Counted from the first letter of the stretch, positions 25,078-40,376 are shown. The stretch is 49,233 bases of DNA from Alphaproteobacteria bacterium (GCA_016869145.1 VGEU01000001.1:1-49233); one strand, 5' to 3'. A program made the numbers and translations. Notes: generated by a model from the sequence alone, not told the origin.

Positions 25078-25392
25078 ATGATCGTCGAGGAACGGATCTA
25101 CACGCTCAAGGCCGGCGCCACGCCCGACTACATGCGTATCTATGAGACGGAAGGGTTGCCGATCCAGACGCGAATCCTCGGCAATCTCGTCGGCTGGTAC
25201 ACGACCGATTTCGGACCGCTCAACCAGGTCGTTCACATGTGGGGCTATGCCGACTTCGCCGACCGCACGCGACGGCGCGCCGCGCTTGCCGCCGACAAGG
25301 ACTGGCAAATCGTGCTCGGCAAGCTCCGCGCGCTGATCCTGACCCAGGAGAACAAGATCCTCTCGCCCGCGCCGTGGTCGCCCGTGCGATGA
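25078..25392 (+). CDS. NIPSNAP-family small protein coupled to a ThDP enzyme
   Basis: 104 residues. ATG25078 is preceded by GGAGGGAAGG. NIPSNAP pattern: [46 protein letters not shown]. It is a close paralogue of the gene at 18677. The stop TGA overlaps the next start as ATGA, so the two proteins are translationally coupled. Divergent from prpD across 56-95 bases depending on the prpD start. Confidence 0.82.
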
Positions 25393-27080
25393 ACACCCGG
25401 CCGAACATGCGCACCGGCGGCCAGATCCTGGTCGATGCGCTCCGCCTCCACGGCACCGACATGGTGTTCTGCGTGCCGGGGGAGAGCTATCTCGCGACCC
25501 TCGATGCCTTCCACGACGCCGCGGACGCGATCCGCCTGATCGTGTGCCGGCAGGAGGGCGGCGCCGCCAACATGGCGGAGGCCTATGGCAAGCTGACCGG
25601 GCGGCCCGGGATCTGTTTCGTCACGCGCGGCCCCGGCGCGACCCACGCCTCGGTCGCGATCCACACCGCGCACCAGGATTCGACGCCGCTGGTCCTCTTC
25701 GTCGGCCAGGTCGGCCGGTCGATGATCGAGCGCGATGCGTTCCAGGAAATCGACTACCGGCGCATGTTCGGCCAGTTCACGAAATGGGTGGCGCAGATCG
25801 ACGATCCGGCGCGCGTGCCCGAGATGGTGAGCCGCGCGTTCCACACCGCGACCTCCGGCCGGCCGGGCCCGGTCGTCCTCGCGCTGCCCGAGGACATGCA
25901 GACCGAGACGGCGGCGGTCGAGGACGGTCTCCGCTATCACCCGATCGAGCCCGCCCCCGATGCCACCGACATGATCCGCCTCCACGACCTCCTGTCACGG
26001 GCGAAGCGCCCGTTGATGATGGTCGGCGGCGGCGGCTGGTCGAAGGCGGCCTGTCGCGACATCGTCGCCTTCGCCGAAGCGAACGACCTCCCGACGATCG
26101 CCGCCTTCCGCCGCCAGGACGTCTTCGACAACACGCACCGCAACTACGCCGGCGATATCGGGCTCGGCATCAATCCGGCGCTGCAGGCACGGGTGCGCGA
26201 AGCCGATCTCCTCCTCGTCGTCGGTGCGCAGCTCACCGAGATCATCACCGGCGGCTATACGCTGTTCGACATGCCGAAGCCGCGCCAGACGCTGATCCAC
26301 GTCCACCCCGGCATCCACGAGCTCGCGCGCGTCTATCAGGGCGATCTCCTGATCAATGCGGGCATGAACCGGTTCGCGCACGCCGCGCGTCTGATGGCAC
26401 ACGTGACCGGGCGGCCGTGGGGCGAGTGGGCGCGCGCCGCACGCGCCGACTATGAGCGCCATCTGGTTCCCGAGGGCTCGCCCGGCGCGGTCGACCTCGC
26501 CGAGATCGTGATCGCGCTCCGCACTCAGCTTCCGCGCGATGCGATCATCGCCAACGGCGCCGGCAACTACACCGTCTGGGTGCACCGGTTCTACCAATGG
26601 CGCGACTACGGCACCCAGCTCGCGCCGCAGTCGGGCTCGATGGGCTATGGCGTGCCGGCCTCGATCACGGCGGCGCTCCTGCACCCCGACCGCCCGGTCG
26701 TCTCCTTCGCCGGCGACGGCTGCTTCCTGATGAACGGCCAGGAGCTCGCGACCGCCGTCCAGTACGGCGCCAAGGTGGTCTACATCGTGGTCAATAACGG
26801 GATCTACGGCACGATCCGCATGCACCAGGAACGCGAGTATCCCGGGCGCATTTCCGGCACCGGGATCAACAACCCCGACTTCGCGGCCTATGCCCGGGCC
26901 TTCGGCGCCCATGGCGAGCTGGTGACGCGGACCGCCGATTTCGCCGCCGCCTTCGACCGCGCCCGCGCGCATGACGGCCCGGCGCTGATCGAGCTTCGGG
27001 TCGACCCGGAAGCGATCACGCCCAAGACGACGCTCCGCGCGATCCGCGACGCCGCGCTCGCCAAGAGCAAGAAAGGGTGA
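25389..27080 (+). CDS. Thiamine-diphosphate-dependent acetolactate-synthase-like enzyme
   Basis: 563 residues from ATG25389 (ATGA overlap with the NIPSNAP gene). The ThDP-activating Glu56 is in CRQEGGAANMAEAYGKLTG. The C-terminal ThDP/Mg motif is FAGDGCFLMNGQELATA, ending in VVNNGIYGTIR. Three domains are recognisable. The family includes acetolactate synthase, glyoxylate carboligase, sulfoacetaldehyde acetyltransferase and related 2-oxoacid enzymes. No regulatory ilvN subunit follows, so this is a catabolic member. The natural reaction is not known. Tail-to-tail with the methyltransferase, 7 bases apart. Confidence 0.88.
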   Translation: MNTRPNMRTGGQILVDALRLHGTDMVFCVPGESYLATLDAFHDAADAIRLIVCRQEGGAANMAEAYGKLTGRPGICFVTRGPGATHASVAIHTAHQDSTPLVLFVGQVGRSMIERDAFQEIDYRRMFGQFTKWVAQIDDPARVPEMVSRAFHTATSGRPGPVVLALPEDMQTETAAVEDGLRYHPIEPAPDATDMIRLHDLLSRAKRPLMMVGGGGWSKAACRDIVAFAEANDLPTIAAFRRQDVFDNTHRNYAGDIGLGINPALQARVREADLLLVVGAQLTEIITGGYTLFDMPKPRQTLIHVHPGIHELARVYQGDLLINAGMNRFAHAARLMAHVTGRPWGEWARAARADYERHLVPEGSPGAVDLAEIVIALRTQLPRDAIIANGAGNYTVWVHRFYQWRDYGTQLAPQSGSMGYGVPASITAALLHPDRPVVSFAGDGCFLMNGQELATAVQYGAKVVYIVVNNGIYGTIRMHQEREYPGRISGTGINNPDFAAYARAFGAHGELVTRTADFAAAFDRARAHDGPALIELRVDPEAITPKTTLRAIRDAALAKSKKG

Positions 27081-27850: not shown

Positions 27851-28684
27851 CTACCGGGCGAGAAGCTTGTTGAGCTCGGGATGCGGCACCGCATCCGCCA
27901 TGTAACCGTAGGTCCCCCCCGCCTTCAGTTCCGCCGCCGCCTTGCGCACGATGCCGTAGGCCGCGCGCGCGATGGAGCCGCCGACGGTGACCCGGCAGAC
28001 GCCGAGGCGTTGCAGCTCCGGCACCGGCGGCGTCTTCGGGGTGGCGAGGATATTCACCGGCGCGGCGATAGACGTCACGAGCCGGCCGATCGATTCCGCG
28101 TCGTTCACGAAGGGAACGAAGATGCTGTCGGCGCCGGCCTGGCGATAGGCATTGCCGCGCGCGACCGCCTCGTCGAAGACCGCGCTCCCCGTGCCGCCGG
28201 TCCAGAAACCGTCGGTGCGGGCGTTGATGACGAGCGGCACGCCGGCCTTGCCGGCGGCCTCGCGCGCGGCCCGGATACGTTCGACCGCGAGAGACCGGTC
28301 GATCAGCGGGCTCTTCGCGTCGTGGGTGCCATCCTCGAGATTGATGCCGACGGCGCCGGCCTCGATCGTCTGGCGCACCGTCTCCGCCACGTGCTCGGGC
28401 TTCGGGCCGTAGCCAGCCTCCATGTCGGCGGTGACCGGAACGCGGAGCCGGGTTGCGATGCGACGGACCATCTCGATCATTTCACCGCGCGAGATCACCT
28501 CGCCGTCCGGATAGCCGTAGACGAAGGCGACGCCGGCGCTCGTCGTCGCGACCGCAGGAAAGCCCGCCTCCTGGAGGAGGACCGCGCTCGCGACGTCCCA
28601 GGCATTCGGGATGAGGAGGATGTCGGGACCCTGGTGGAGTCTGCGGAACGCCTCCGCCCTCGCCGTCTGTGTCGCATTGTCCAT
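27851..28684 (-). CDS. PEP-mutase / isocitrate-lyase family protein
   Basis: 277 residues from ATG28684, with AGAAGGG upstream. Phosphoenolpyruvate-mutase-like TIM barrel: IPNAWDVASAVLL, DMEAGYG (metal binding), GINLEDG and INARTDGF. The lyase loop KKCGH of PrpB/AceA is replaced, so methylisocitrate lyase activity is not expected; the family includes oxaloacetate decarboxylases and carboxy-PEP mutases. Substrate unknown. Confidence 0.82.
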   Translation of the reverse strand: MDNATQTARAEAFRRLHQGPDILLIPNAWDVASAVLLQEAGFPAVATTSAGVAFVYGYPDGEVISRGEMIEMVRRIATRLRVPVTADMEAGYGPKPEHVAETVRQTIEAGAVGINLEDGTHDAKSPLIDRSLAVERIRAAREAAGKAGVPLVINARTDGFWTGGTGSAVFDEAVARGNAYRQAGADSIFVPFVNDAESIGRLVTSIAAPVNILATPKTPPVPELQRLGVCRVTVGGSIARAAYGIVRKAAAELKAGGTYGYMADAVPHPELNKLLAR

Positions 28685-28711
28685 CGCCGCACCCTTCTGT
28701 CGAGCCGGTGA

Positions 28712-28740
28712 AGGATAGCGCGCGGCGACGACCGTGTCTT
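28712..28740 (-). promoter_or_regulatory. Putative promoter of the PEP-mutase-family gene
   Basis: On the minus strand: AAGACA (28740-28735), 17-base spacer, TATCCT (28717-28712), about 28 bases before ATG28684. Matches to consensus are moderate. Confidence 0.35.
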
Positions 28741-28751
28741 CCCGCGTGAGA

Positions 28752-29947
28752 CTAGGGCGTCGGAGCGGTCGCCCGGGCGAGCGCCGCGACGAGGTCCTGC
28801 GGCTCGACCGGCTTTGCCACATGATCGGTCATGCCGGCGGCGAGGCAGCGCTCGCGATCGCCCGGCAAGGCATCAGCGGTGAGCGCGATGATCGGCGCCC
28901 GGCCGCGCGCATCGCCGAGCGCGCGGATTGCGCGCGTCGCCTCAACCCCATCGAGGACCGACATGTTACCGGCATGTTGAGGTCCATCAGGATCGCGTCG
29001 TAGACGGTCCAGCGGGCCATGGCGACGGCCTGGGCGCCGGTCGCGACGACATCGACCCGATGCCCGGCCCGCTCGAGGATGGTGGCGAGAAACATCCGGT
29101 TGATCTCGTTGTCCTCGGCGAGAAGGAGGTTGAGCGACGCGAGCGCGCCTGGCGCACGCCGGGCGTGGTCCTGCGGTTCGACCGCCGCACGGCCGAACGG
29201 CACGGTGAAATGGAGCCGGCTGCCACCACCCGGCGCCGGCGCGACCGCGATCTCTCCCCCCATCCGCTCGACGAGCGTCCGGCTGATCCAGAGCCCGAGC
29301 CCGGCGCCACCCCGCCTCCGCCCGCCCTCGCCTTGTCGGAAGCGGGCGAAGAGCGTCGCCGCTTCCTCGGCCGGGATCCCGGGGCCGGTATCGGTCACGG
29401 CGAACCCGAGCGTCGTCTGCGTCCGGCCGCGCGCCGCGACCGCCACATCGATGGCGATGCCGCTGCGCTCGGTGAACTTGATCGCGTTGCCGACGAGATT
29501 GGCGAGCACCTGGCGGACGCGGACCCCGTCGCCGAGGAGGCTCACCGGGACGTCCGGCGCGATGGTCGCAACGAGCGTGAGGCCGCGCGCCGCCGCCCGC
29601 GGCCGTTCGAGCTCGACGAGACCGGCGATGAGATCGGCGGCCGAGAACGGGCGCATTTCGATCGCGAACCCGTCCCTATCGAGCCGCGCGAGATCGATGA
29701 CGTCGTCGAGGAGGCGGGCGAGCGTCTCGGTCGCGCCGCGGAGCGCCTCGACATGGCGTCGCTGGGTCGGATCGATCGCCTCGTCGGCGAGGAGCGTGGT
29801 CATGCCGAAGATGCCGCCGAGCGCCGTCCGCATCTCGTGGCTGACCGTCGCGAGCGCTTCGAGCGAAGGGTCACGTTGGTCGGGAACGGCGGCCTCGGCC
29901 GGCGGAGCCGGCTCGGTCAAGGCAGCGCGGGCGCGGGGCGCGTTCAA
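28752..29947 (-). pseudogene. Hybrid sensor histidine kinase with frameshift in the receiver domain
   Basis: Starts at TTG29947 (GAGG upstream). Dimerisation helix with His37 in ATVSHEMRTALGGIFG, HATPase domain with [10 protein letters not shown] and [18 protein letters not shown], then a receiver from [11 protein letters not shown] to the phospho-acceptor Asp322 in LMDLNMP. Immediately after that the frame changes: the correct continuation, [15 protein letters not shown] through [15 protein letters not shown], is in another frame from 28964 to 28752. The shift lies between 28962 and 28972 and is repaired by adding one base. There is no transmembrane or sensor domain, so an intact form would be a cytoplasmic signalling kinase. 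Confidence 0.8.
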
Positions 29948-30028
29948 TGGACCAGCCTCGGCATACGATGGCAGGTCGATCGTTTCGGATGGCGGTTAAA
30001 CCGGGATTAACGGCGCCGGTGGCCGTGG

Positions 30029-31351
30029 TTAGAGAAGCCGGATCTCCGGGATCGGGCCACCATCGGCCATCGCCAGCACCGGCCCGATCACCGACTGCGG
30101 GTCGGCGAGGCCCGCGAAACGAAGGAGATCGCGCGCCTTGTCGATCATCTCGGCGGCCGACAGCGCGAGCTCAGGGTCGCCCTTGCAGTGGGTGCGCGCC
30201 GCGCTGATGCGCCGGCCATCCTTGAAGACGACCGCGACCTCGCCGCCCCAGGCGCGCGGGTAGTTGCCGGCATAGGGCTCGCCGGCGCGGACCCGCATGA
30301 GGCGACGGAGCGCCCCGGCCCGGCCGCGGGCGCCCGGCTCGAAGCTCTCGAACGAGACCTTGCCGTCGAGGAGCGCGATCGCGACGCAGTGCTGCAGCGA
30401 GAACTTGGCCTCGTAGAGGCTCGCCGGCTCCGCCCGGTCGCACACATCGAGCGCGGCGCGATAGGTGACGACGTCGACCTCGGCAACCGACTGCGTCGCG
30501 AGCGAGGGCGCGAGCTCGAGCGCGGCATCGATCACCGGGTGGGTGTGGCGGCACGACGGCCACGGCTTGATCGATGTCGCATGGACCTGCCAGCGGGATT
30601 CCGGGCTCCGGAATACCGCGTCGGGGTCCGGATCGGGGCAAGCGCCGGCATAGAGCCCCGCCGGCCCCTCGAGGATCGTGGGCGGGCCGGTGAACCCCTC
30701 GGCGGCGAGCTCGGCCGCGACCACGCCGGCTTCCGCGGCACGGCCGGCGTGAAGGTGCTTCGACATGGCGCCGGTCGCGAGGAACTCCCAGAGCCCCGCC
30801 GACTGGGTTCCGGCATTGCCGAGCGCATGCACCGCCTGGTCGTCGTCGAGACCGAGAAGCGCCGCCGCCGCCATCGCCGACCCGTACGGCCCGCAGGTCG
30901 CGGTGTTGTGCCAGACCTTGTAATGGGCCCCGCCGACCGACATGCCGACGCGTGCCGTCGCCTCGAAGCCGTGCAGGATCGCCCGCAGGACCGCCTCGCC
31001 CGTGGCCCCTTTGGCGCGCCCGATCTCGAGCGCGGCGGGCACGACGACGCAGCCGGGATGGACGACCGAGGCGCGGTGGAGATCGTCGACCTCGAGGATG
31101 TGGATGAGCGCGCCCATCAGGAAGGCGCGCCGCCCGGCATCGCCCTGGCGACCCTTGGCCCATTTGAGGAGCACCTCGCCCGGGGCCGAGCGCCGCCCGG
31201 CGAGGGCATTGGCGATCGCATCGAGGGTGAACAGCGCCGTCACCTCGAGGTCGGCCGCCTGGATCGGCTTGGTGCGGATCAGGGTCACGAGGCGCCGGGT
31301 CAGTGACCCGGCGTCCCGCTCGGCGAGCCTCGGGGTGGCGGTCGCGTTCAT
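30029..31351 (-). CDS. MmgE/PrpD family protein
   Basis: 440 residues. All-helical MmgE/PrpD domain with HILEVDDLHRASVVHPGCVVVPAAL, WHNTATCGPYGSAMAAAALLG and IKPWPSCRHTHPVIDAAL. It is more like the general MmgE/PrpD group (itaconate/aconitate-isomerising or dehydrating enzymes) than the true PrpD at 23474. Last gene of the apparent eight-gene ABC-Rieske operon, 7 bases after the amidohydrolase. It may dehydrate or isomerise a product of that pathway. Confidence 0.85.
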   Translation of the reverse strand: MNATATPRLAERDAGSLTRRLVTLIRTKPIQAADLEVTALFTLDAIANALAGRRSAPGEVLLKWAKGRQGDAGRRAFLMGALIHILEVDDLHRASVVHPGCVVVPAALEIGRAKGATGEAVLRAILHGFEATARVGMSVGGAHYKVWHNTATCGPYGSAMAAAALLGLDDDQAVHALGNAGTQSAGLWEFLATGAMSKHLHAGRAAEAGVVAAELAAEGFTGPPTILEGPAGLYAGACPDPDPDAVFRSPESRWQVHATSIKPWPSCRHTHPVIDAALELAPSLATQSVAEVDVVTYRAALDVCDRAEPASLYEAKFSLQHCVAIALLDGKVSFESFEPGARGRAGALRRLMRVRAGEPYAGNYPRAWGGEVAVVFKDGRRISAARTHCKGDPELALSAAEMIDKARDLLRFAGLADPQSVIGPVLAMADGGPIPEIRLL

Positions 31352-31358
31352 CGCGGCC

Positions 31359-32588
31359 TCAGGTCATCGGCTTGTAGTTCGGGTAGCGGGCGGACACGTC
31401 GATGTCGAACAGCTTCCGCGAGTTCTCGCCGAGGATGTTGCGCTTGGCCTTCTCGTCGAGGAACGGCAGGTCGTAGATGACGCTCGGCAGATCCATGTCC
31501 CAGTGCGGATAGTCGGAGCACCACAAGAGTTGCGTCTCCGCCTTGATCATCTTGAAGGTGCACTCGAGCACGGACATGTCGCTCGGCATCTCCATCGGCT
31601 GGTTGGTGTAGAACATGTCCTGCATGTACTCGCTCGGCAGCTTCTTGAGGCCGGGGGCCTCGGAGCTCCGCATCTTGTAGTCGTTGTCGAGCCGCTGCAT
31701 CAGCCACGGGATCCAGGCGAGGCCGGACTCGATCCACACCACTTTGAGCTTGGGGAACCGTTCCGGCAGCGCGTTGACGATCCAATTGGCGCAGTGAACG
31801 ACGTTGAAGAACGTGAAGCCGAGCGCGTGGGCGACCAGGAACCGGTTGGTGTTGGAGAGCATCTGGTCGTTCCAGTTATACGAGGCGTGGAAGCTGAGCG
31901 GCTTCCCCATCTCCTCGATCAACCGGTAGGTCTTCATGTAGGCGTTGTCGTGCACCGGCTTGTAGCGGGTGGACACCACCATGAAGCCGCACACGCCCTT
32001 CTTGTCGCCGAAGTCCTTGACCATCTTGTAGGTCGCTTCGGGATCGTTGAACGGGAGATACAGCATCGTCTTGATGCGCGGCTCGTCGGCCATGATCTTC
32101 TCGATCAGCCAACGGTTATAGGCGCGCGACATGGCGACCTCGACTTCGGCCTGCGGGTGGAGGCCGAGGAGCAGCATCGGGGTCGGGAACAGACAGGCAT
32201 AGTCGACGCCCATCGCGTCCATCCACTTGAGCGACAAATGGACGTCGCGGTGCTTGCCGTCGGCCGGCGTTCTCTCGGTCTTGCGCAAGGGATAGCGCGT
32301 CACGCGCCCGGCCATGTCCTGGTAGCCGACGACACCGGGCAGAAGCGGCGTCTGCGCACCGGTGCCCTTGCCGGAATAGACGAGACCGGTGTGGCGGATG
32401 ACCGGATCCTCGATGAACTGCACGATCTCGGCCATCGACTCGTTCTCGTAGTGATGGCAGTCGATGTCGATGATCGGAAACTGGTGGTACTTGCGCTCGT
32501 CGCGCTGGCGCGCGGCGTTGATGAGCAGCTTCGCGGTATCGAACTCCTCGACGGTCATCTTGTGGATGTCGCTGGTCGGCAATTCCAT
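31359..32588 (-). CDS. PF04909-type amidohydrolase family protein (ACMSD-like decarboxylase group)
   Basis: 409 residues; ATG32588 has a strong GAAGGAGG. Metal-site motifs of the amidohydrolase-2 superfamily: IDIDCHHYE near residue 41, MGVDYACLFPTP, FHASYNW, and WCSDYPHWD near the C terminus. This group mostly contains non-oxidative decarboxylases (ACMSD, 5-carboxyvanillate, resorcylate) and some hydrolases. It lies 11 bases after the 108-residue unknown gene and 7 before the MmgE/PrpD gene. Confidence 0.85.
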   Translation of the reverse strand: MELPTSDIHKMTVEEFDTAKLLINAARQRDERKYHQFPIIDIDCHHYENESMAEIVQFIEDPVIRHTGLVYSGKGTGAQTPLLPGVVGYQDMAGRVTRYPLRKTERTPADGKHRDVHLSLKWMDAMGVDYACLFPTPMLLLGLHPQAEVEVAMSRAYNRWLIEKIMADEPRIKTMLYLPFNDPEATYKMVKDFGDKKGVCGFMVVSTRYKPVHDNAYMKTYRLIEEMGKPLSFHASYNWNDQMLSNTNRFLVAHALGFTFFNVVHCANWIVNALPERFPKLKVVWIESGLAWIPWLMQRLDNDYKMRSSEAPGLKKLPSEYMQDMFYTNQPMEMPSDMSVLECTFKMIKAETQLLWCSDYPHWDMDLPSVIYDLPFLDEKAKRNILGENSRKLFDIDVSARYPNYKPMT

Positions 32589-32599
32589 CGTTTCCTCCT

Positions 32600-32926
32600 T
32601 CAGACCCCTGACCAGGCCTGGAACATTCCAAGCTCGAACAGTTCGAGATTGACCGCCCGCAGCATCACGGTCGCCATGATCATGACCGCCGTCGCCGGGA
32701 TCGGCCGCGACAGATCGAACGGCGCGACGCGCTCGCCAAGCTGGAAACGCACGGTGTAGAGCCGCACCAGCGCCGTCATGAATTCCTGGATCAACTCGGG
32801 CGGCAGTTCGGCACCCGGCGGCAGCGCGGCGAGCTTCGCCGCGGCGGCCCGGAGGAGCGCCCCTTCCTCGCCCGCATCCGCAAGGAGATCGCCCGGCGCG
32901 CCGGACGCGGCCTCAGACGAGGACAT
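32600..32926 (-). CDS. Uncharacterised 108-residue protein coupled to the Rieske gene
   Basis: 108 residues, not recognised. Acidic, alanine-rich N terminus (residues 1-35), then a helical part with LIQEFMTALVRLYTVRFQLGER and a C-terminal VMIMATVMLRAVNLELFELGMF. No signal peptide; one hydrophobic helix of about 20 residues that is probably amphipathic rather than membrane-spanning. Its ATG32926 lies inside the end of the Rieske gene (14-base overlap), so the two are translated together and may form a complex. Confidence 0.65.
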   Translation of the reverse strand: MSSSEAASGAPGDLLADAGEEGALLRAAAAKLAALPPGAELPPELIQEFMTALVRLYTVRFQLGERVAPFDLSRPIPATAVMIMATVMLRAVNLELFELGMFQAWSGV

Positions 32927-33284
32927 AAACGGCGTCGCCCTTCTCGACGACGTCGTATTTGCGCAGGCGGAACTTGCGATCGGCGACCATGTGGCCGGTC
33001 TCGAGATCGTATTCCCAGCCGTGCCACGGGCACACGATGTGCATCTCGTTGTGGTTGAAGCGCATGCCCTGATAGGTCTTGTCCGGTGCGATGACCTCCT
33101 CGACCTTGGCCATCAGGAGTCCCTCGCAGGCCGGGCCGCCCTGATGGCCGCACAGGTTCTGGTAGGCATAGAGCTTGCCCTTGACGCGATAGACGCCGAT
33201 CTCGGATTTGCCGTTGGGGATGATCTTGCGATCCCCGTCCTTGAGCTCGCCCGACTTGCACACCATCAGTTCGGTCTTGGCCAT
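32913..33284 (-). CDS. Rieske [2Fe-2S] ferredoxin-like protein with long inter-motif insert
   Basis: 123 residues. Cluster ligands are Cys45-His47 (CGHQGG) and Cys85-His88 (CPWHGWEYDLETG). The two halves are separated by 37 residues instead of the usual 16-17 seen in ring-hydroxylating dioxygenases and their ferredoxins, so the basal part carries an insert (EEVIAPDKTYQGMRFNHNE). No oxygenase alpha subunit or reductase is nearby. It may donate electrons to the amidohydrolase-side chemistry or another enzyme, or the coupled 108-residue protein may be a partner. Confidence 0.82.
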   Translation of the reverse strand: MAKTELMVCKSGELKDGDRKIIPNGKSEIGVYRVKGKLYAYQNLCGHQGGPACEGLLMAKVEEVIAPDKTYQGMRFNHNEMHIVCPWHGWEYDLETGHMVADRKFRLRKYDVVEKGDAVYVLV

Positions 33285-33312
33285 CTTCGTCCCCTGGGTC
33301 TCTTACTTGGTG

Positions 33313-34155
33313 TTATCGCGTGCTGAGGCTGTTCGACGATCCGCGGACGACCTTACCACCTGTCCGGTAGCGGTTGAAGTTGTCCTGGAAGCGCGTCATG
33401 CCGACATTGGCCGCCGCCGCCAGCCCGAAGATGATCAGGAGCATCGCGTACATCGGCGCGATCTGGAACTGCTCGTAGTACTGCATCAGGCGGTGGCCGA
33501 CGCCGGCGTCTGAGAACTTGATCTCGGCGACGATGATGCCGATCACGGTGATCGCCATGCCGAGGCGCAACCCGGTGATGACGGGGTTCATCATCGCCGG
33601 GATGTAGATCTTCGCCACAGTCTGCCAGACCGACAGGTTGAAGCTGCGCCCGACCCGCAGCAGCACCGGGTTGATCGTCACCATGCCGAGAATGGTTGAG
33701 AACACGACCGGGAAGAACGCCGACAGCGCACCCTTGGCCATCTTGGACTCGATGCCAGTACCGAACATCAGGAACAGGATCGGCAGGAAGATGATCTTGG
33801 GCGTCGAGCCGATCGCGTTGAGATAGGGCTCGAGCACGCGGCGGAGATAGGGCGTCGCGCCGAGGACGATCCCGGTGGCGATGGCGATGCCGGAGCCGAC
33901 GAGGAAGCCGACCACGTATTCGAGGAACGTGTAGCCGAGATGGAAATAGAACTTCCCGTCCGTCAGCTCGCGCGCGATGGCGATGACGATCTTGTAGGTC
34001 GACGGGATGACGTCGCGGTAGAACAGGCCCGAGTTGGCCATCGCCTCCCAAATCAGGAACAGGACGACGACCGTGACGACGCGAACCCGCGTGACGGTCC
34101 AGCCGCGGGACAACCAGCTCGATCGGGTCGACTGGATTACGCCGGTCTGAGCCAT
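33313..34155 (-). CDS. ABC transporter permease (SsuC/TauC type), second of pair
   Basis: 280 residues, BPD_transp_1 permease with about six helices; EAA-loop region around IYIPAMMNPVITGLRLGM. Same family as the gene at 34137, whose end it overlaps by 19 bases. The pair forms a heterodimeric channel for the nitrate/sulfonate/taurine-type importers. N-terminal cytoplasmic extension RSSWLSRGWTVTRV. Confidence 0.88.
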   Translation of the reverse strand: MAQTGVIQSTRSSWLSRGWTVTRVRVVTVVVLFLIWEAMANSGLFYRDVIPSTYKIVIAIARELTDGKFYFHLGYTFLEYVVGFLVGSGIAIATGIVLGATPYLRRVLEPYLNAIGSTPKIIFLPILFLMFGTGIESKMAKGALSAFFPVVFSTILGMVTINPVLLRVGRSFNLSVWQTVAKIYIPAMMNPVITGLRLGMAITVIGIIVAEIKFSDAGVGHRLMQYYEQFQIAPMYAMLLIIFGLAAAANVGMTRFQDNFNRYRTGGKVVRGSSNSLSTR

Positions 34156-34901
34156 CGCTCGATCCTCCCGAAGCCCCAGAAGAAGAAGACGCTCACGGCG
34201 ATCACGGCGAGGATGCTGGCATAGGTGCTGGGGATCTCGAAGCGGAAATACATCTCCGAGACGACCCTGCCGAGCCCGCCGAAATCGACCAGGTACTCGA
34301 TGGCGACGATGTTAACCAACGTATACATGACACCGACCTTGATTCCGGTGAACACCGCCGGAACCGCCGCTGGCAGCATGATCTTCCAGAACAGGACGCG
34401 CTCGGGCGTGTTGAAGGTCCGCCCGACATTGATCAGGGTCTGCGATACGCCGAGAAGGCCCTGACGCGTCTGGATGATGATCGGGATGCAGCCCGGGATA
34501 GCCCCCATCACGATCAGGGTCAGATGGGTTCGCCCGAAGAGGACCAGGAACAAGGGATAGAGAAGGACGAGCGGCGCCGAAAAGGCGGCGGCGAGCCAGC
34601 CCTCATAGGCGACGCCGAGGACGTGGTTGCGATAGAGAAGATAGCCGAAGGGGATACCGATGATCAGCGCGATCGCGGTCGCGACCGCGGTCATGCCGAG
34701 CGTCGTGAAAAACGCGCCCAGGAGGTCCATCTCGCGGAAGAGAGGCGGAAACGACTCGATCGTCTCGGTCGGGCGCGCGACGATCAGCGCCGGGATCCAT
34801 TTCTGGTTGACGCAGAACTCGAGGATCGCCGCGAGGATCACGAGGCCGACGAACCCCGCCATCATCGGCGACAGGAACACCTTCCTCAGCATCGTCTCCA
34901 C
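34137..34901 (-). CDS. ABC transporter permease (SsuC/TauC type), first of pair
   Basis: 254 residues with six hydrophobic segments and the EAA loop near WKIMLPAAVPAVFTGIKVG, which docks on the ATPase at 36016. It lies 68 bases after the binding-protein gene; the gap contains the tandem repeat at 34928-34987 that also includes the stop of that gene. Confidence 0.88.
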   Translation of the reverse strand: METMLRKVFLSPMMAGFVGLVILAAILEFCVNQKWIPALIVARPTETIESFPPLFREMDLLGAFFTTLGMTAVATAIALIIGIPFGYLLYRNHVLGVAYEGWLAAAFSAPLVLLYPLFLVLFGRTHLTLIVMGAIPGCIPIIIQTRQGLLGVSQTLINVGRTFNTPERVLFWKIMLPAAVPAVFTGIKVGVMYTLVNIVAIEYLVDFGGLGRVVSEMYFRFEIPSTYASILAVIAVSVFFFWGFGRIERWLRPA

Positions 34902-34927
34902 CGTGGCGATCCTCCCGCTTGTTATCG

Positions 34928-34987
34928 GATCAGCGCTGCGCCGGGCGATCTAGCGCTGCGCCGGTCGATCTAGCGCTGCGCGCCGGG
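34928..34987. repeat. Three tandem copies of a 20-bp unit at the end of the binding-protein gene
   Basis: Units at 34928-34946, 34947-34966 and 34967-34987, each containing GCGCTGCG followed by CCGG or GCCGG; copy one lacks one base and copy three has one extra. Copy three includes the real stop codon of the binding-protein gene (TAG at 34972-34970), so the 3' end of the gene has been duplicated twice downstream by slippage. Confidence 0.85.
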
Positions 34988-35950
34988 CGGCAGCCACACG
35001 AAGTCGACGAGCTGCCTCTTCTGCTCGCTGGTCAACGGCTCGCGGATCTGCTGGGTCTCGAGCGCGATCTGGACCAGACGATCGAGCTCGCCGATCGGCG
35101 AGAAGCTCACCTCGTCATATTTCACGAACTCGGGCCCGCGCCGCGCGTCGTTGATGTCCATGCCCCATTCCTTGGCATAACGCTCGAAGGCGCGGTCGCC
35201 GCCCTTGTACTGGAACTCGAGCCCGCGCCACATGGCGCGCATGAACCGGGTCGCGACGTCGCGGTTCTTCTTCACCCATTCGGAGTTGGCGGCATAGACG
35301 CGAATGGTCGCGCCACGAAGACCCGACGCCTCGTCGCCGGTGCCGATGATCCGGATCTCGTTGCGGCGGAGAAGGTCGAGACCCGCCGGCGGCGTCATCC
35401 ACCCGGTCGCGACCTGGCCGGTCATGACCTGGGTGCGAGAGGCGGCCATGCCGCCGACCGATACGAGCTTCACGCTGTCGAGCGCGAGGGTCTTCTTGAT
35501 GTCGAGCACGCCGAGATGGCTGGTCGTGCCGTTGCGCGAGAAGACGAGCTCCTTGTCGCCGATGTCCTTGAACGTCTTGATCGCGCTGTCGGCCTTCACG
35601 TACCAGACCGTATCGCCGATGCCGCGCTTGGTGCTTCCGAGGATAACGAGCGGCGCGCCCTTGGAGAAGGCGCTGATCACGCTCAGCACACCGACGCCGT
35701 TGGTCGCGTCCTGGCTGCCGGTGATGATGGTCTGGAGCGTCGCCGCGCCACCGTCGCTGTAGATGATCGAGACGTCGAGCTTCTCCTCCTTGAAATAGCC
35801 CTCGGCGAGCGCCTGGTTGGGCGCATACATCTCGAACGGCATCTTGGTGCTGACGATGAGCCGCACGCGGTCATTGGCCTCCGCGGCGATCGGAAGTGCG
35901 ACGATCGCCGAGGTCGCCAACGCGAAACCAAACGCTTTCCAACGTGTCAT
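34970..35950 (-). CDS. ABC transporter periplasmic substrate-binding protein (NMT1/SsuA/TauA-like)
   Basis: 326 residues from ATG35950, chosen because the preceding AGAGGAAACAC is a usable ribosome site and the first 25 residues form a signal peptide ending at PIAAEA. The mature protein has the type II binding fold: VSTKMPFEMYAPNQALAEGYFKEEKLDVSII, then GVGVLSVISAFSKGAPLVI and ATRFMRAMWRGLEF. Ligands of this family are sulfonates, nitrate, thiamine precursors, phthalate and other anionic compounds. The downstream amidohydrolase and Rieske genes suggest an aromatic or dicarboxylic acid here. Confidence 0.85.
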   Translation of the reverse strand: MTRWKAFGFALATSAIVALPIAAEANDRVRLIVSTKMPFEMYAPNQALAEGYFKEEKLDVSIIYSDGGAATLQTIITGSQDATNGVGVLSVISAFSKGAPLVILGSTKRGIGDTVWYVKADSAIKTFKDIGDKELVFSRNGTTSHLGVLDIKKTLALDSVKLVSVGGMAASRTQVMTGQVATGWMTPPAGLDLLRRNEIRIIGTGDEASGLRGATIRVYAANSEWVKKNRDVATRFMRAMWRGLEFQYKGGDRAFERYAKEWGMDINDARRGPEFVKYDEVSFSPIGELDRLVQIALETQQIREPLTSEQKRQLVDFVWLPPGAQR

Positions 35951-36015
35951 GTGTTTCCTCTCCCTGTGCGGAGCCAGTCCGCCTTGAAATTCCGGTTGCG
36001 ACCGATGCGCGCGTG

Positions 36016-36831
36016 CTACTGCGCCGCGGCGCGGCCGGCGATGCGCCGTTCCTGGTCGAGCATGCCGCGCGTCGCCTCCTCGCGGAGCTCGTTCCAGATC
36101 GAGCCGACATATTGGCCGAACGCCGCGGTCGTGATGACCTCGGAGCTGCGCGGCCGCGGCAGGTCGATGTCGATGACGCGCTTGATCTTGCCCGGGCGGA
36201 ACGACATCACGACGACGCGATCGCTGAGCTGAACCGCCTCGGTGATGTTGTGGGTGATCAGCAGCATCGTCTGGTTGAGCGTGCGCCAGATCTCGAGAAG
36301 CTTGTCGCCGAGGAGGAGACGCGTCTGCTCGTCGAGGGCCCCGAACGGCTCGTCGAGCAGCATCAAGCGCGGCTCGTAGGCGAGCGTCCGCGCGACGGCG
36401 GTGCGCTGCTTCATGCCGCCCGAGAGTTGCGCCGGGTAATGGTTCTCGAACCCGTCGAGCCCGACCAGCTTGATGAAATGGAGCGCCCGCTTCTCGCGCT
36501 CCGCCTTGGCCATGCCCTGAACCTCGAGCGGAAAGGCGACGTTCTCGAGCGTGGTCCGCCAGGGGAAGGTCGATTCTTCCTGGAAGACGACGCCGACATC
36601 GGTATGGACGCCGTTGACCTCGTGGCCGGCGATGCGAACGCTGCCGCCATAATCGCCGATCAGGCCGGCGATGATGTTGAACAAGGTCGACTTGCCGCAA
36701 CCGGAGGGACCGATGACGGAGACGAACTCGCCCTGCCGCACCGAGAGCGAGACGTCATCGAGCGCAACCACCGCATTAGGGCCATCCCCAAACGTTTTGC
36801 TGACACTCGCTATTTCAAGAATGTTCGTCAT
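36016..36831 (-). CDS. ABC transporter ATP-binding protein (SsuB/TauB type)
   Basis: 271 residues. Walker A GPSGCGKST at 41-49, Q-loop VVFQEES near 82, signature LSGGMKQR at 136-143, Walker B LMLLDEPFGALD at about 156-167 and H-loop LITHNITEA. Length and the C-terminal RPGKIKRVIDIDLPRPR tail are typical of SsuB/TauB. First gene of the minus-strand operon; promoter 141-168 bases upstream. Confidence 0.92.
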   Translation of the reverse strand: MTNILEIASVSKTFGDGPNAVVALDDVSLSVRQGEFVSVIGPSGCGKSTLFNIIAGLIGDYGGSVRIAGHEVNGVHTDVGVVFQEESTFPWRTTLENVAFPLEVQGMAKAEREKRALHFIKLVGLDGFENHYPAQLSGGMKQRTAVARTLAYEPRLMLLDEPFGALDEQTRLLLGDKLLEIWRTLNQTMLLITHNITEAVQLSDRVVVMSFRPGKIKRVIDIDLPRPRSSEVITTAAFGQYVGSIWNELREEATRGMLDQERRIAGRAAAQ

Positions 36832-36971
36832 GCTTCCCTGCGGTTGTCCGGCCGTTCGGTAGGCTCAGGTTCCGGGCATGTGGCGGGATCGGTCGTCAGG
36901 CCATCGCCATGCACCAGGCACCGCCCGACGCACCGCGGATATATCCGTCCGCCGTCCCGACCGGCGTTTTC

Positions 36972-36999
36972 AATCTATCCAACGCCCTGACCCTGTCAA
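36972..36999 (-). promoter_or_regulatory. Putative sigma70-type promoter of the ABC-Rieske operon
   Basis: On the minus strand: perfect TTGACA (36999-36994), 16-base spacer, TAGATT (36977-36972). The transcription start should be near 36965, about 134 bases before ATG36831, leaving a leader in which a regulator could act. Confidence 0.55.
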
Positions 37000-37041
37000 T
37001 TGCGGATACTCCCGGGGCGATCGGCCGCCGCCGGCGCAGAC

Positions 37042-37050
37042 TTATCCACA
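37042..37050 (+). promoter_or_regulatory. Perfect DnaA-box 9-mer
   Basis: TTATCCACA equals the high-affinity DnaA box; TTGTCCACA at 37164-37172 differs by one base, 122 bases downstream on the same strand. In this GC-rich sequence a perfect copy is expected only about once in several windows, but two boxes do not make an origin. Confidence 0.35.
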
Positions 37051-37188
37051 CCAAGAGGGGCTCCCGCACCCGGTCGCCCCGCCGTCGGCGGTGCCGTCCG
37101 ACACGACCCTGGCGCGAACCCGGTCGGTCGGGCGCTCAACTACCGGGCCATTTGCCAACAGAGTTGTCCACAATGCCCCGGCGGTGCC

Positions 37189-39000
37189 TCAACCGGCCGA
37201 TCCCTCGCCGCTCGCCCGTGTCGCCATCGGCGCGGCATAGCCAGGCTCGACATGAACATCGAGCAGGAACGGCTCGCCGGCATCGACCGCGGCGAGCGCG
37301 CGGCGCATCGCCGGCACGAGCGCGCCGATCGTCTCGACCGGCCCCTCGGCCTTGATGCCCTGGGCGCGCGCGAAGCCCGCGAGGTCCAGGGTCGGATGGT
37401 CGATCTGCTGTCCGATCCACCGGTTCTCGACCGGACGGCCGCGGTCCTTGGCGACGGTCTCCTGGTGGATCTCGTCGTTGAAGTTCGACCGGTTGTTCGA
37501 GATCACGAACAGTACCGGGATCTTGTAGTGGGCGGCGGTCCACAATGCCGTGCCGCCCTGCATGAAATCGCCGTCACCGAGGATCGAGATCGTCGTCCGA
37601 CCGCTGCCGAGAAGCCCGAGCGCGGTGCCGATCGCCGCACCCGGTCCGTTGCCGAGGCCGCCGCCCCCGTCATTGCCCATGTAATCGAGCGGGCCGGTGA
37701 AGTGGTAGGCATCGCCCGCCCAGCCGAGCGGCACGCGCGCGAGCGTGACGGCGCGCTGGCCCTTCGCCTCGTTGAGCGCGAGCGCGACGTCGCGGGGTGT
37801 TATGCGGGCGTTCTGGTCGCGGTCGCCGATCTTCGGGATCGGCGCCCGGGTGGCCTTGGGCTTGCCGTCCCATGCCGATCGGCGCCCGGCCAGCGCATCG
37901 AGAAGCTGGCCGGTGAAGACATCGGGGTCGGCCAGAACCGGCAGGTCGTTCGGCGCCAGATGGAAGTGGTCCATGCTCCAGCCATTGTGGAGATAGCTGT
38001 CAAGCGAGGCGTGGATGACCTTGCCCGCCACGTTGTCCTTGGAGCCGAGAGCGGTCTTGAACGTACCGCCGAGATCGAGCCAGTCGAGGCTAAGGATCAC
38101 GTCCGCGTTGCGGAACGCGGCCTTCGCGGCATCCGTCATATGGCTCGCCGGCGGCGAGACCATGAGGGCGTGATCGGACGGGAAGGATGCGGCCGACTTG
38201 AGATCGGTGAGCACACCGGCGCCGAGGAGCTCGGCGAGCTTGACCCGGCGGACCCAGTCGTCCTGGCGACGCGACACCCGGCCGGCGAGGATCAGCGGGC
38301 TCTTGGCCGCGGTCAGAAGCTCGACCGCGCGTTTCACCGCTTCGGCCGATGCCGGCGACGGATCGGCCGGCCGATAGCGGGCCACCTCCGGGATGCGCAC
38401 GTCCCTCTTGAGCTCGGTCTCCTGCAGCCCGGCATCGAGGCAGACATAGACCGGCCCATGGGGCGCCGTCTTGGTGATCTGGACGGCGCGCAGCATGGAT
38501 TCGACGATCGCCTGCGCCGAGCGCGGCTCGTCGTCCCACTTGACGTAGCTCCGCAGGAGTGCGCCCTGGTCCTTCGCGGTGTGGATCCAGTCGATCCACG
38601 GCCGGCGCAGCTCGGAATCGACCGGACCCGTCGCGCCCATCACCACCATCGGCACGCGCCCGCACCAGGCGTTGAACACGTTCATCAGCCCGTGCATCAA
38701 CCCGACATTCGAATGCAGCACGCAGCCCATCGGCTCGCCGGTGACCTTGCCGTAGCCGTGCGCGATCGCGACCGCGTGGTCCTCGTGCAGGCAGAGGAGC
38801 ATCTGCGGATCGACATTGCCGAGATAGTTCACGAGGCTGTCGTGAAACCCGCGATAGCTCGCCCCCGGATTGAGCGCGATGAACTTGATGTCGAGCCGGC
38901 GCAGCATCTCGGCGGCGACGTCGCTCGCCCAGCCCATGCGCCGGTTGCCGCCGAGTTTCGGGCGATCGAACTTGGTCAGATCGGGGGTCGAGTCTGGCAT
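37189..39000 (-). CDS. Thiamine-diphosphate-dependent 2-oxoacid decarboxylase-like enzyme
   Basis: 603 residues. Catalytic Glu73 is in LLCLHEDHAVAIAHGYGKVTG; the ThDP/Mg motif ILGDGDFMQGGTALW continues to FVISNNRSN. Middle-domain LILAGRVSRRQDDWV is present. The protein is about 75 residues longer than benzoylformate decarboxylase. It starts 3 bases after the stop of the FMN alpha-hydroxyacid dehydrogenase, a combination that suggests oxidation of an alpha-hydroxyacid to a 2-oxoacid and then its decarboxylation. Other catabolic ThDP enzymes cannot be excluded. Confidence 0.85.
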   Translation of the reverse strand: MPDSTPDLTKFDRPKLGGNRRMGWASDVAAEMLRRLDIKFIALNPGASYRGFHDSLVNYLGNVDPQMLLCLHEDHAVAIAHGYGKVTGEPMGCVLHSNVGLMHGLMNVFNAWCGRVPMVVMGATGPVDSELRRPWIDWIHTAKDQGALLRSYVKWDDEPRSAQAIVESMLRAVQITKTAPHGPVYVCLDAGLQETELKRDVRIPEVARYRPADPSPASAEAVKRAVELLTAAKSPLILAGRVSRRQDDWVRRVKLAELLGAGVLTDLKSAASFPSDHALMVSPPASHMTDAAKAAFRNADVILSLDWLDLGGTFKTALGSKDNVAGKVIHASLDSYLHNGWSMDHFHLAPNDLPVLADPDVFTGQLLDALAGRRSAWDGKPKATRAPIPKIGDRDQNARITPRDVALALNEAKGQRAVTLARVPLGWAGDAYHFTGPLDYMGNDGGGGLGNGPGAAIGTALGLLGSGRTTISILGDGDFMQGGTALWTAAHYKIPVLFVISNNRSNFNDEIHQETVAKDRGRPVENRWIGQQIDHPTLDLAGFARAQGIKAEGPVETIGALVPAMRRALAAVDAGEPFLLDVHVEPGYAAPMATRASGEGSAG

Positions 39001-39003
39001 CCG

Positions 39004-40080
39004 TCAATACTCCGGCGTGGGAATGTGGACATGGGTGTAGGCGCTCGCCGCGTGCGGCGACGTCACCGGCAAGGCCGGGTGCAGATAGGCGCGGTTGAGC
39101 TGCGCGAGGCGCGTGACGCCGAGGAGGCCCATCGCGGACTTCATCTCGATCTCGAGGATGTCGAGCATGCGCGCGAGGCCGGCGACGCCGCCCGCCGCCA
39201 TCGCCCAGCCTTGCAGCTTGCCGAGCGCGACGACATCGGCACCGAGCGCGATCGCCTTCACGATGTCGGAGCCCCGACAGAACCCGCCGTCGACCATGAT
39301 CCGGGCGCGGCCCTTCGCGACGTCGACGATCTCGGGCAGCATGTCGATCGTGGCGCGCCCATGGTCGAGCTGGCGGCCGCCGTGGTTCGACACGTAGATG
39401 ACATCGACGCCATGCTCGATGCAGAGCGCGGCGTCTTCGGCGGTCGCGATGCCCTTGAGGACCAGGGGCACCGAAAGGAGGTCCTTGAGACGCTTGACCG
39501 TGTCCCAGGAGAGTGCCGCCTGCCAATCGCGCCCGCCGGCACTGCGGCGGCCGGCCGGGACGTAGCGCTTGATCAGGTCGCGCTCGCGCCGACTATAAAC
39601 GGCCGTGTCGACCGTGAGGGCGAACGAGAAATAGCGGTGCTGCATCGCGCGGCGCGCGTAGTCGTCGACCCAATCGGCATCGCCGCGGACATAGAGCTGG
39701 AACATGGTCGGGTTATCGGCCTTGGCCACCTCCTCGAGGCCCGGCTGCGTGACCGAGCTCACGATCGAGAAGATGCCTCCCGCCTTGGCGCCGAGCGCGG
39801 CGGTCATGGCGCCGCCCTTCTCGATCGTCTGCAGCGATCCGATCGGGGCGAGCGCGATCGGAAGGCGCATCTTCACGCCGAGGAAATTCGTCGTGCAGTC
39901 GATGTCGCTCACGTCGACGAGGACGCGCGGGCGGAACGCGATGCAGTCGAGCCCGTGCCGATTGCGTCGCAGCGTGGTCTCGGATTCGGCGCCGCCCGAC
40001 AGGTAGTCCCAGACGTCGAGAGGCAGGCGCCGGCGCGCCTCGCGGTAGATTTCCTGAAGCGTCTCGAAATGGGTCAACAC
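39004..40080 (-). CDS. FMN-dependent alpha-hydroxyacid dehydrogenase/oxidase
   Basis: 358 residues, probably from GTG40080 (GGAGGGGC just upstream; a TTG follows directly). FMN-dependent TIM barrel with Tyr130 (FQLY), Lys209 (LVLKG) and the catalytic base His233 in SNHGGRQLD, plus MVDGGFCRGSDIVKAIALGA. Members include lactate dehydrogenase, mandelate dehydrogenase and glycolate oxidase. With the coupled ThDP enzyme it makes a mandelate-type two-step pathway likely. Confidence 0.9.
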   Translation of the reverse strand: MLTHFETLQEIYREARRRLPLDVWDYLSGGAESETTLRRNRHGLDCIAFRPRVLVDVSDIDCTTNFLGVKMRLPIALAPIGSLQTIEKGGAMTAALGAKAGGIFSIVSSVTQPGLEEVAKADNPTMFQLYVRGDADWVDDYARRAMQHRYFSFALTVDTAVYSRRERDLIKRYVPAGRRSAGGRDWQAALSWDTVKRLKDLLSVPLVLKGIATAEDAALCIEHGVDVIYVSNHGGRQLDHGRATIDMLPEIVDVAKGRARIMVDGGFCRGSDIVKAIALGADVVALGKLQGWAMAAGGVAGLARMLDILEIEMKSAMGLLGVTRLAQLNRAYLHPALPVTSPHAASAYTHVHIPTPEY

Positions 40081-40172
40081 GCCCCTCCCCGGTCGGCTCT
40101 TGTCGTGACCGGTGGTCTAGCCAAGCGGTTCCGGGCTGTCCAGGCGAATCCGGCGAGCTCGGCTGCGCGAGC

Positions 40173-40376
40173 CTAGTCCATCGGGCTCGGCAGGAACAAC
40201 GAAATCGCCGGCAACGCGACCGGCGGCGCGATCGACCCGTTGACGACGATCTCGATCGTCTGCGCGCCGAACCAGATGAGGATGGACCAGATGAGGATGG
40301 AGAGGATGCGCGCGCGGCGCGGCCCGATCGCGTCATGCGCCGGGGAAGGGTCAATCGACCCCGCCTCGCGCGCATG
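40173..40376 (-). CDS. Possible small membrane peptide or gene remnant without canonical start
   Basis: A frame of 67 codons between two TAG stops, with no ATG, GTG or TTG before a TTG near its end. It contains one strongly hydrophobic helix (ILSILIWSILIWFGAQTIEIVV) and a positively charged stretch before it (GPRRAR). ATT40355, eight or so bases after GAGGCGGGG, is the only start with a plausible ribosome site. It could be the 3' remnant of a membrane-protein gene. No family recognised. Confidence 0.25.
   Translation of the reverse strand, partial: HAREAGSIDPSPAHDAIGPRRARILSILIWSILIWFGAQTIEIVVNGSIAPPVALPAISLFLPSPMD
40271..40300. repeat. Perfect 15-bp tandem duplication
   Basis: ACCAGATGAGGATGG occurs at 40271-40285 and again at 40286-40300. 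On the minus strand it duplicates five codons, SILIW-SILIW, inside the hydrophobic helix of the small frame, keeping the frame intact. Confidence 0.9.

What the first reader, a model, noticed from the sequence alone, without database searches (positions are those of the whole stretch)
30029..36831. Eight-gene ABC-Rieske-amidohydrolase-MmgE operon with an unknown 108-residue member
Very short gaps or overlaps (28, -14, 11, 7 bases) join a SsuABC-type importer to a Rieske protein, an unknown helical protein, a PF04909 amidohydrolase and an MmgE/PrpD protein, all behind one TTGACA promoter. There is no oxygenase alpha subunit for the Rieske protein. A complete uptake-and-degradation module for one compound is likely, with the unknown protein possibly a missing enzyme subunit. 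This is the best candidate in the window for an undescribed system.
Basis: partly seen in the sequence, partly recalled or inferred. Interest (0 to 1): 0.62.

Follow-up and report, generated by a model that had tools for sequence, protein, structure and literature searches.

The report
Rieske-fed metal monooxygenase with new partner
A bacterial gene cluster that looked like an importer plus an electron-carrier protein with no oxygenase very probably does contain the oxygenase, because its "amidohydrolase" carries every metal ligand of a recently recognised two-metal oxygenase family, and the unknown 108-residue protein is a nearly inseparable companion of that enzyme for which no description was found.

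Summary
The eight-gene operon is real: coordinates and quoted gaps check out, and its order recurs in two other families of the same order. The Rieske protein is not missing an oxygenase. The PF04909 "amidohydrolase" (31359-32588) has all six metal ligands plus the diagnostic second-shell Asp of the amidohydrolase-related dinuclear oxygenases (AROs: AibH2, SfbO, PtmU3). The 108-residue protein (U108) matches nothing in Pfam, NCBIfam or the PDB. It sits with a Rieske ferredoxin and an ARO in every locus not cut by a contig end except one decayed cassette, in several gene orders. In 387 alphaproteobacterial genomes, U108 and this ARO clade occur in exactly the same 19. Eleven Rieske-linked AROs outside the clade lack U108; 8 of them carry instead a second, AibH1-like PF04909 subunit with Asp342 replaced by Gln, which no U108 locus has. 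Best explanation: a Rieske-fed dinuclear monooxygenase in which U108 takes the place of the AibH1-type auxiliary subunit. ARO identity is firm on sequence; the role of U108 is inferred; the substrate is unknown. A fused AlphaFold2 model did not dock U108 confidently. New variant of a known kind.

The parts
31359..32588 (-). PF04909 'amidohydrolase' = predicted ARO dinuclear monooxygenase; ligands D43, H45, H234, E287, D359, H362 and second-shell D364
   Evidence: a relative's model
32600..32926 (-). U108, unknown 108-residue helical protein, the constant companion of this ARO clade
   Evidence: no Pfam, NCBIfam or PDB sequence match; AlphaFold2 four helices, pLDDT 84.7; cassette linkage
32913..33284 (-). 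Rieske [2Fe-2S] ferredoxin (CxH ... CxxH), predicted electron donor to the ARO
   Evidence: PF00355 2.1e-15; motif spacing
33313..34155 (-). ABC permease B
   Evidence: PF00528
34137..34901 (-). ABC permease A
   Evidence: PF00528
34970..35950 (-). NMT1/SsuA-like substrate-binding protein
   Evidence: PF09084 5.3e-17; SsuA_fam below its cut-off
36016..36831 (-). ABC ATPase (taurine/nitrate/sulfonate type)
   Evidence: PF00005; NCBIfam matches all below cut-off
30029..31351 (-). MmgE/PrpD family enzyme, nearest in the PDB to iminodisuccinate epimerase and cis-aconitate decarboxylase
37189..39000 (-). ThDP-dependent enzyme, benzoylformate-decarboxylase-like; conserved neighbour in the relatives
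39004..40080 (-). FMN-dependent alpha-hydroxy-acid dehydrogenase/oxidase; homologues recur near the cassette in relatives
36972..36999 (-). possible sigma-70 promoter TTGACA-16-TAGATT (weak evidence)
   Evidence: TTGACA before the ABC gene also in five relatives of one genus

Best explanation
The operon encodes uptake and first-step oxidation of a small organic substrate by a Rieske-fed dinuclear (Fe2 or Mn/Fe) monooxygenase of the amidohydrolase fold (an ARO). Electrons pass from an unidentified, unlinked reductase to the Rieske protein (32913-33284) and on to the dinuclear site of the PF04909 protein (31359-32588), which activates O2 and hydroxylates a C-H bond. U108 (32600-32926) is a small non-catalytic helical partner that takes the place of the AibH1-type auxiliary subunit of AibH1H2. 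It probably binds the ARO, the Rieske protein or the interface between them, stabilising the enzyme or gating electron transfer. MmgE/PrpD, the hydroxy-acid dehydrogenase and the ThDP enzyme would process the product. Shown by sequence: ligand set, family placement, cassette linkage, alternation of U108 with an AibH1-like partner in the sampled loci. Inferred: chemistry, metal identity, contacts, role of U108. Unknown: substrate.
For: Best PDB sequence matches of the PF04909 protein are AROs: 8sm7 (2.6e-35), 8sm6 SfbO (2.6e-30), 8sm9, AibH2 (2.2e-22), 8sm8, PtmU3 (by profile). All AibH2 ligands (D25, H27, H211, E265, D337, H340; PMC10401708) and the Asp342 equivalent, reported to mark dinuclear sites (PMC7782822), are present, with no substitution in 149 homologous ORFs. 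Foldseek ranks AROs and AibH1H2 chains 1-19, ahead of decarboxylases, for a relative's model. In AibH1H2GF all four proteins were needed and Rieske AibG is the electron carrier (PMC7782822); Rieske adjacency was the criterion by which AROs were discovered (PMC10811679). U108: 76 of the 80 best genome hits have both partners; three others begin at a contig end and one is a decayed cassette. Orders Rieske-U108-ARO 84, ARUA 9, ARU 6, RUAA 4, RAU 1. U108 and this ARO clade (518 bits or more) occur in the identical 19 of 387 genomes, from eight families. Eleven Rieske-linked AROs outside the clade: no U108, 8 with a D342Q partner. Distance correlations U108-ARO 0.87, U108-Rieske 0.84, null maximum 0.11.
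Against: No biochemical data. AlphaFold2 on a read-through U108-ARO chain gave pTM 0.71, about what two independent domains and a loose linker would give, so direct contact is not supported; that model had one ARO copy and no Rieske protein. The genome has seven AROs with full ligands but only two U108 genes, so five lack a neighbouring U108. Three of the 11 AROs outside the clade have neither U108 nor an H1-like partner, and PtmU3 is reported to work without one (PMC10401708). No reductase gene was recognised in the cluster. High distance correlations are expected of any genes inherited together.
Confidence: 0.72

Rival explanations
1. U108 is an assembly or metal-loading factor (metallochaperone-like) needed to build the dinuclear or [2Fe-2S] centre, not a component of the working enzyme.
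For: Obligate linkage to two metalloproteins. Fewer U108 genes (2) than AROs (7) in this genome would suit a catalytic assembly factor acting in trans. No docking was seen in the fused model.
Against: Invariant and nearly invariant positions are T79, F97, L99, M101, Q47, W102: no Cys or His, so no obvious metal-binding set. AROs expressed in E. coli take up metal without any U108 (PMC10811679), though those AROs come from outside this clade.
Confidence: 0.2
2. U108 serves the Rieske protein only (docking or stability partner of the ferredoxin), regardless of the oxygenase.
For: U108 is usually next to the Rieske gene and overlaps it by 14 bases here. U108-type Rieske proteins have a CxH-CxxH spacing of mostly 36-38 residues against 32 in the 12 spacings read beside AROs without U108.
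Against: U108 tracks one ARO clade exactly across 387 genomes. In one locus the order is Rieske-ARO-U108.
Confidence: 0.15
3. The PF04909 protein is an ordinary hydrolase or ACMSD-like decarboxylase and the Rieske protein serves an oxygenase elsewhere.
For: Pfam annotation is 'Amidohydrolase'; many PF04909 members are decarboxylases.
Against: The closest solved relatives are all AROs, the dinuclear ligand set and Asp342 equivalent are invariant, and the Rieske gene accompanies it in nearly every U108 locus.
Confidence: 0.05
4. U108 is a regulator or unrelated passenger in a long operon.
For: No known fold or family.
Against: Kept through changes of gene order and of neighbouring genes, in several alphaproteobacterial families, two Burkholderiales-type records and an Actinomycetota MAG.
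Confidence: 0.05

Closest known systems
AibH1H2-AibG-AibF, 2-aminoisobutyrate monooxygenase of Rhodococcus wratislaviensis (PMC7782822, PMC10401708)
   Same: PF04909 catalytic subunit with the same six ligands and Asp342 equivalent; small Rieske protein encoded alongside; transporter gene linked
   Different: Catalytic subunit is paired with a second PF04909 protein (AibH1, mononuclear); a reductase (AibF) is in the cluster; no U108 in the published gene table. Here there is one catalytic PF04909 protein, U108, and no recognised linked reductase
SfbO and the other crystallised AROs 8SM7, 8SM8, 8SM9 (PMC10811679)
   Same: PF04909 with dinuclear ligands, found by adjacency to a Rieske protein; best sequence matches of the window protein
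   Different: About 20-26% identity to a model of this clade in structural alignment; no U108 mentioned in the main text; native substrates unknown
PtmU3, diterpenoid hydroxylase (PDB 6OMP-6OMR)
   Same: Dinuclear amidohydrolase-fold hydroxylase; sequence match 7.8e-12
   Different: Biosynthetic; reported to have no auxiliary mononuclear partner (PMC10401708); Glu rather than Asp at the 342 position (PMC7782822)
Bacterial multicomponent (diiron) monooxygenases such as toluene-4-monooxygenase
   Same: Works like one: oxygenase, Rieske-type ferredoxin and possibly a small effector protein
   Different: Catalytic subunit is a TIM barrel rather than a four-helix bundle (PMC7782822); that U108 acts as an effector is only an analogy

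Membership tests
Amidohydrolase-related dinuclear oxygenase (ARO) | PF04909 domain | tested here: met
   PF04909 2.4e-20, above its cut-off
Amidohydrolase-related dinuclear oxygenase (ARO) | six metal ligands equivalent to AibH2 D25, H27, H211, E265, D337, H340 | tested here: met
   D43, H45, H234, E287, D359, H362; no substitution in 149 ORFs
Amidohydrolase-related dinuclear oxygenase (ARO) | acidic residue at the AibH2 Asp342 position | tested here: met
   D364, conserved; Gln in the H1-like partners of loci outside the clade
Amidohydrolase-related dinuclear oxygenase (ARO) | small Rieske protein encoded next to it | tested here: met
   window, and nearly every U108 locus
Amidohydrolase-related dinuclear oxygenase (ARO) | closest solved structures are AROs | tested here: met
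   sequence; fold of a relative:
Amidohydrolase-related dinuclear oxygenase (ARO) | O2-dependent hydroxylation by a dinuclear Fe or Mn/Fe site | not testable with these tools
   needs purified protein
AibH1H2-type heteromeric ARO | second PF04909 subunit lacking the Asp342 equivalent | tested here: not met
   no such gene in the operon; none of 149 ORFs departs from Asp there; present in 8 of 11 Rieske-linked loci outside the clade
AibH1H2-type heteromeric ARO | linked flavin reductase (AibF) | tested here: not met
   none among the eight genes and two upstream neighbours
Rieske non-heme dioxygenase system | oxygenase alpha subunit with its own Rieske and mononuclear Fe domains | tested here: not met
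   none among the genes 30029-40080
U108: any known protein family | match in Pfam, NCBIfam or PDB sequences | tested here: not met
U108: any known fold | significant structural match in the PDB | tested here: inconclusive
   no Foldseek match at E <= 0.001; VIA-align best Z 7.7, to generic helical hairpins over residues 5-66

The most novel reading that the evidence does not exclude
U108 founds a new family of obligatory coupling or effector subunits that defines a second architecture of ARO monooxygenases (Rieske-U108-ARO), alternative to the AibH1H2 type with its second PF04909 subunit.
Probability: 0.5. Interest if true: 0.72.

Novelty: new variant of a known kind. Interest (0 to 1): 0.55.

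Why it matters
AROs are a young enzyme class, found in 2019-2024, some using Mn/Fe instead of Fe2 to attack C-H bonds. How they receive electrons and why some need a second, apparently non-catalytic subunit is open. A clade that seems to have exchanged that subunit for a 108-residue protein gives a small, directly testable system for this question. It also corrects an annotation ('amidohydrolase') that hides probable monooxygenases in many Alphaproteobacteria. The claim is predictive: U108 marks these loci, and cultured strains with the cassette exist (Paracandidimonas soli DSM 100048, Ancylobacter polymorphus DSM 2457, Sinorhizobium mexicanum ITTG R7).

Tried and rejected
Family and fold identification of U108: Pfam (also over 29 members), NCBIfam, PDB sequences by profile, Foldseek and VIA-align all gave nothing significant. 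U108-ARO docking: AlphaFold2 on an in-frame read-through of locus L101 (564 residues, stop codon read as Gly, 43-residue natural linker) with a part-paired alignment gave pTM 0.71 and low confidence for the end of U108, so it does not show docking. Natural gene fusions of U108 with the Rieske protein or the ARO: none among the ORFs examined. Riboswitch before the ABC gene (xanthine/NMT1 motif considered because of the NMT1 transporter): no Rfam match in 29800-40300. Literature for a small third ARO component: none found in the open library; the supplementary figures and tables of the ARO papers could not be read, so a prior mention there is not excluded. Substrate: the importer is SsuA/TauA-like below all curated cut-offs and the MmgE protein is nearest to iminodisuccinate epimerase; neither is specific enough to name a substrate. 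I considered that the U108 gene might be a passenger; rejected because it persists through several gene orders and different neighbours.

Full report
What is in the sequence. The eight genes lie on the minus strand exactly as reported, with the quoted gaps of 28, -14, 11 and 7 bases. Pfam confirms an ABC importer with an NMT1-type binding protein, a small Rieske protein, a PF04909 protein and an MmgE/PrpD protein; the 108-residue protein, here U108, has no match. Two further genes upstream on the same strand, a ThDP enzyme and an FMN hydroxy-acid dehydrogenase (37189-40080), belong to the conserved neighbourhood.

Conservation. Of 143 related genomes, 26 encode U108. Maps of the surrounding DNA show the whole eight-gene order in two other families of the order (L034-L037; L047, L048, L050, L051, some with an extra PF04909 gene). 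In a fourth family the importer is replaced by a second PF04909 gene and two hydroxy-acid dehydrogenase genes stand upstream, while PF04909-Rieske-U108-PF04909-MmgE remains. A second Rieske-U108-PF04909 set lies in the same genome on contig 10.

The oxygenase. The best PDB matches of the PF04909 protein are the amidohydrolase-related dinuclear oxygenases (AROs): 8sm7, SfbO 8sm6, 8sm9, AibH2, 8sm8 and PtmU3. The published AibH2 ligands are D25, H27, H211, E265, D337 and H340 (PMC10401708), and an acidic residue at 342 is reported only in dinuclear members (PMC7782822). The window protein has D43, H45, H234, E287, D359, H362 and D364, and none of 149 homologous ORFs shows a substitution at any of the seven positions; gaps occur only in incomplete sequences. 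Foldseek places AROs and AibH1H2 chains at ranks 1-19 for a model of a relative. Small Rieske proteins next to PF04909 genes are the signature by which AROs were found (PMC10811679). The 'missing' oxygenase is therefore this protein. That it hydroxylates, and with which metals, is inference from the family.

U108. A scan of genome contigs gave 137 relatives; in 76 of the best 80 both a Rieske and a PF04909 gene are adjacent on the same strand, three more start at a contig end, and one (L096) carries a decayed cassette. Across non-redundant loci the orders are Rieske-U108-ARO 84, ARO-Rieske-U108-ARO 9, ARO-Rieske-U108 6, Rieske-U108-ARO-ARO 4 and Rieske-ARO-U108 1. In 387 alphaproteobacterial genomes U108 occurs in 19, and the ARO clade (518 bits or more; the next best hit is 162) in the same 19, from eight families. 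In a second sample, the two genomes with strong ARO hits, beyond the window's own, have four Rieske-U108-ARO loci.

The contrast. Eleven Rieske-linked ARO loci outside this clade (about 140-160 bits; L187-L197) have no U108 even at E 0.01. Eight of them carry a second PF04909 protein in which the Asp342 equivalent is Gln, as expected of an AibH1-like auxiliary subunit. No U108 locus has such a partner. The Rieske proteins also differ: residues between CxH and CxxH are 36-38 in all but one of 132 readings with U108, and 32 in the 12 readings beside AROs without U108. Hence the proposal that U108 stands in for the AibH1-type subunit. It is based on a modest sample of loci outside the clade, and 3 of the 11 have neither partner.

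Structure of U108. AlphaFold2 predicts four helices (11-33, 43-62, 78-91, 96-105) with mean pLDDT 84.7; the most conserved positions are Q47, T79, F97, L99, M101 and W102, mainly hydrophobic and near the C-terminus, which suggests a docking surface rather than a metal site. No known fold was found, but a helical protein of this size is a weak query. A read-through U108-ARO chain did not give a confident arrangement (pTM 0.71); this neither shows nor excludes binding, since the ARO dimer and the Rieske protein were absent.

What remains open. The genome holds seven AROs of this clade with intact ligands but two U108 genes, so either U108 acts in trans on several AROs or some AROs do without it. 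No reductase is linked. The substrate is unknown: the importer resembles sulfonate/taurine/nitrate systems below all curated cut-offs, the MmgE protein is nearest to iminodisuccinate epimerase and cis-aconitate decarboxylase, and the upstream enzymes would suit oxidation of a hydroxy acid followed by ThDP-dependent cleavage. The promoter claim is weak. No RNA element was found.

Verdict. The system is a new variant of a known kind: a Rieske-fed ARO monooxygenase whose auxiliary subunit appears to be an undescribed 108-residue protein.

Noticed in passing
G000 contigs C1, C6, C10, C15, C24, C112 (L153, L154, L062, L198, L199, L200 and the window): The genome encodes seven AROs of this clade with complete ligand sets, five of them with no Rieske or U108 gene detected nearby; an unusually rich set.
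   Followed up: partly
L201 6522-8156 (G000:C1:111043-112155): A divergent PF04909 homologue (335 bits) with several metal ligands replaced in the alignment (D, R, H, E, G, Q, N at the seven positions): possibly a non-catalytic relative.
   Followed up: no
window 32913-33284 and U108-type Rieske proteins: Residues between the CxH and CxxH motifs number 36-38 in almost all, against 16 in an unrelated Rieske protein of L053 and 32 in those of AROs without U108; a possible docking insertion.
   Followed up: partly
L096 7207-8210: Cassette with an apparently shortened Rieske reading frame, an intact U108 frame and no ARO downstream: the only full-length locus where U108 lacks an ARO neighbour.
   Followed up: partly
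L101 7740-7890: In this Hyphomicrobiales locus the U108 reading frame begins with a Lys/Ala-rich extension that looks disordered.
   Followed up: no
window 34925-34985: Short imperfect tandem repeat (CGGCGCAGCGCTAGATCG...) across the stop codon of the binding-protein gene.
   Followed up: no
window 25239-27080 and 27851-28822: A second ThDP-dependent enzyme on the plus strand, and on the minus strand a protein that looks like the isocitrate lyase/PEP mutase family (recalled, not tested).
   Followed up: no
L033-L037, upstream of the ABC gene: A conserved stretch TTGACA followed about 20 bases later by AACATGATCCCACGC directly before the ABC gene: a candidate promoter in that genus.
   Followed up: no
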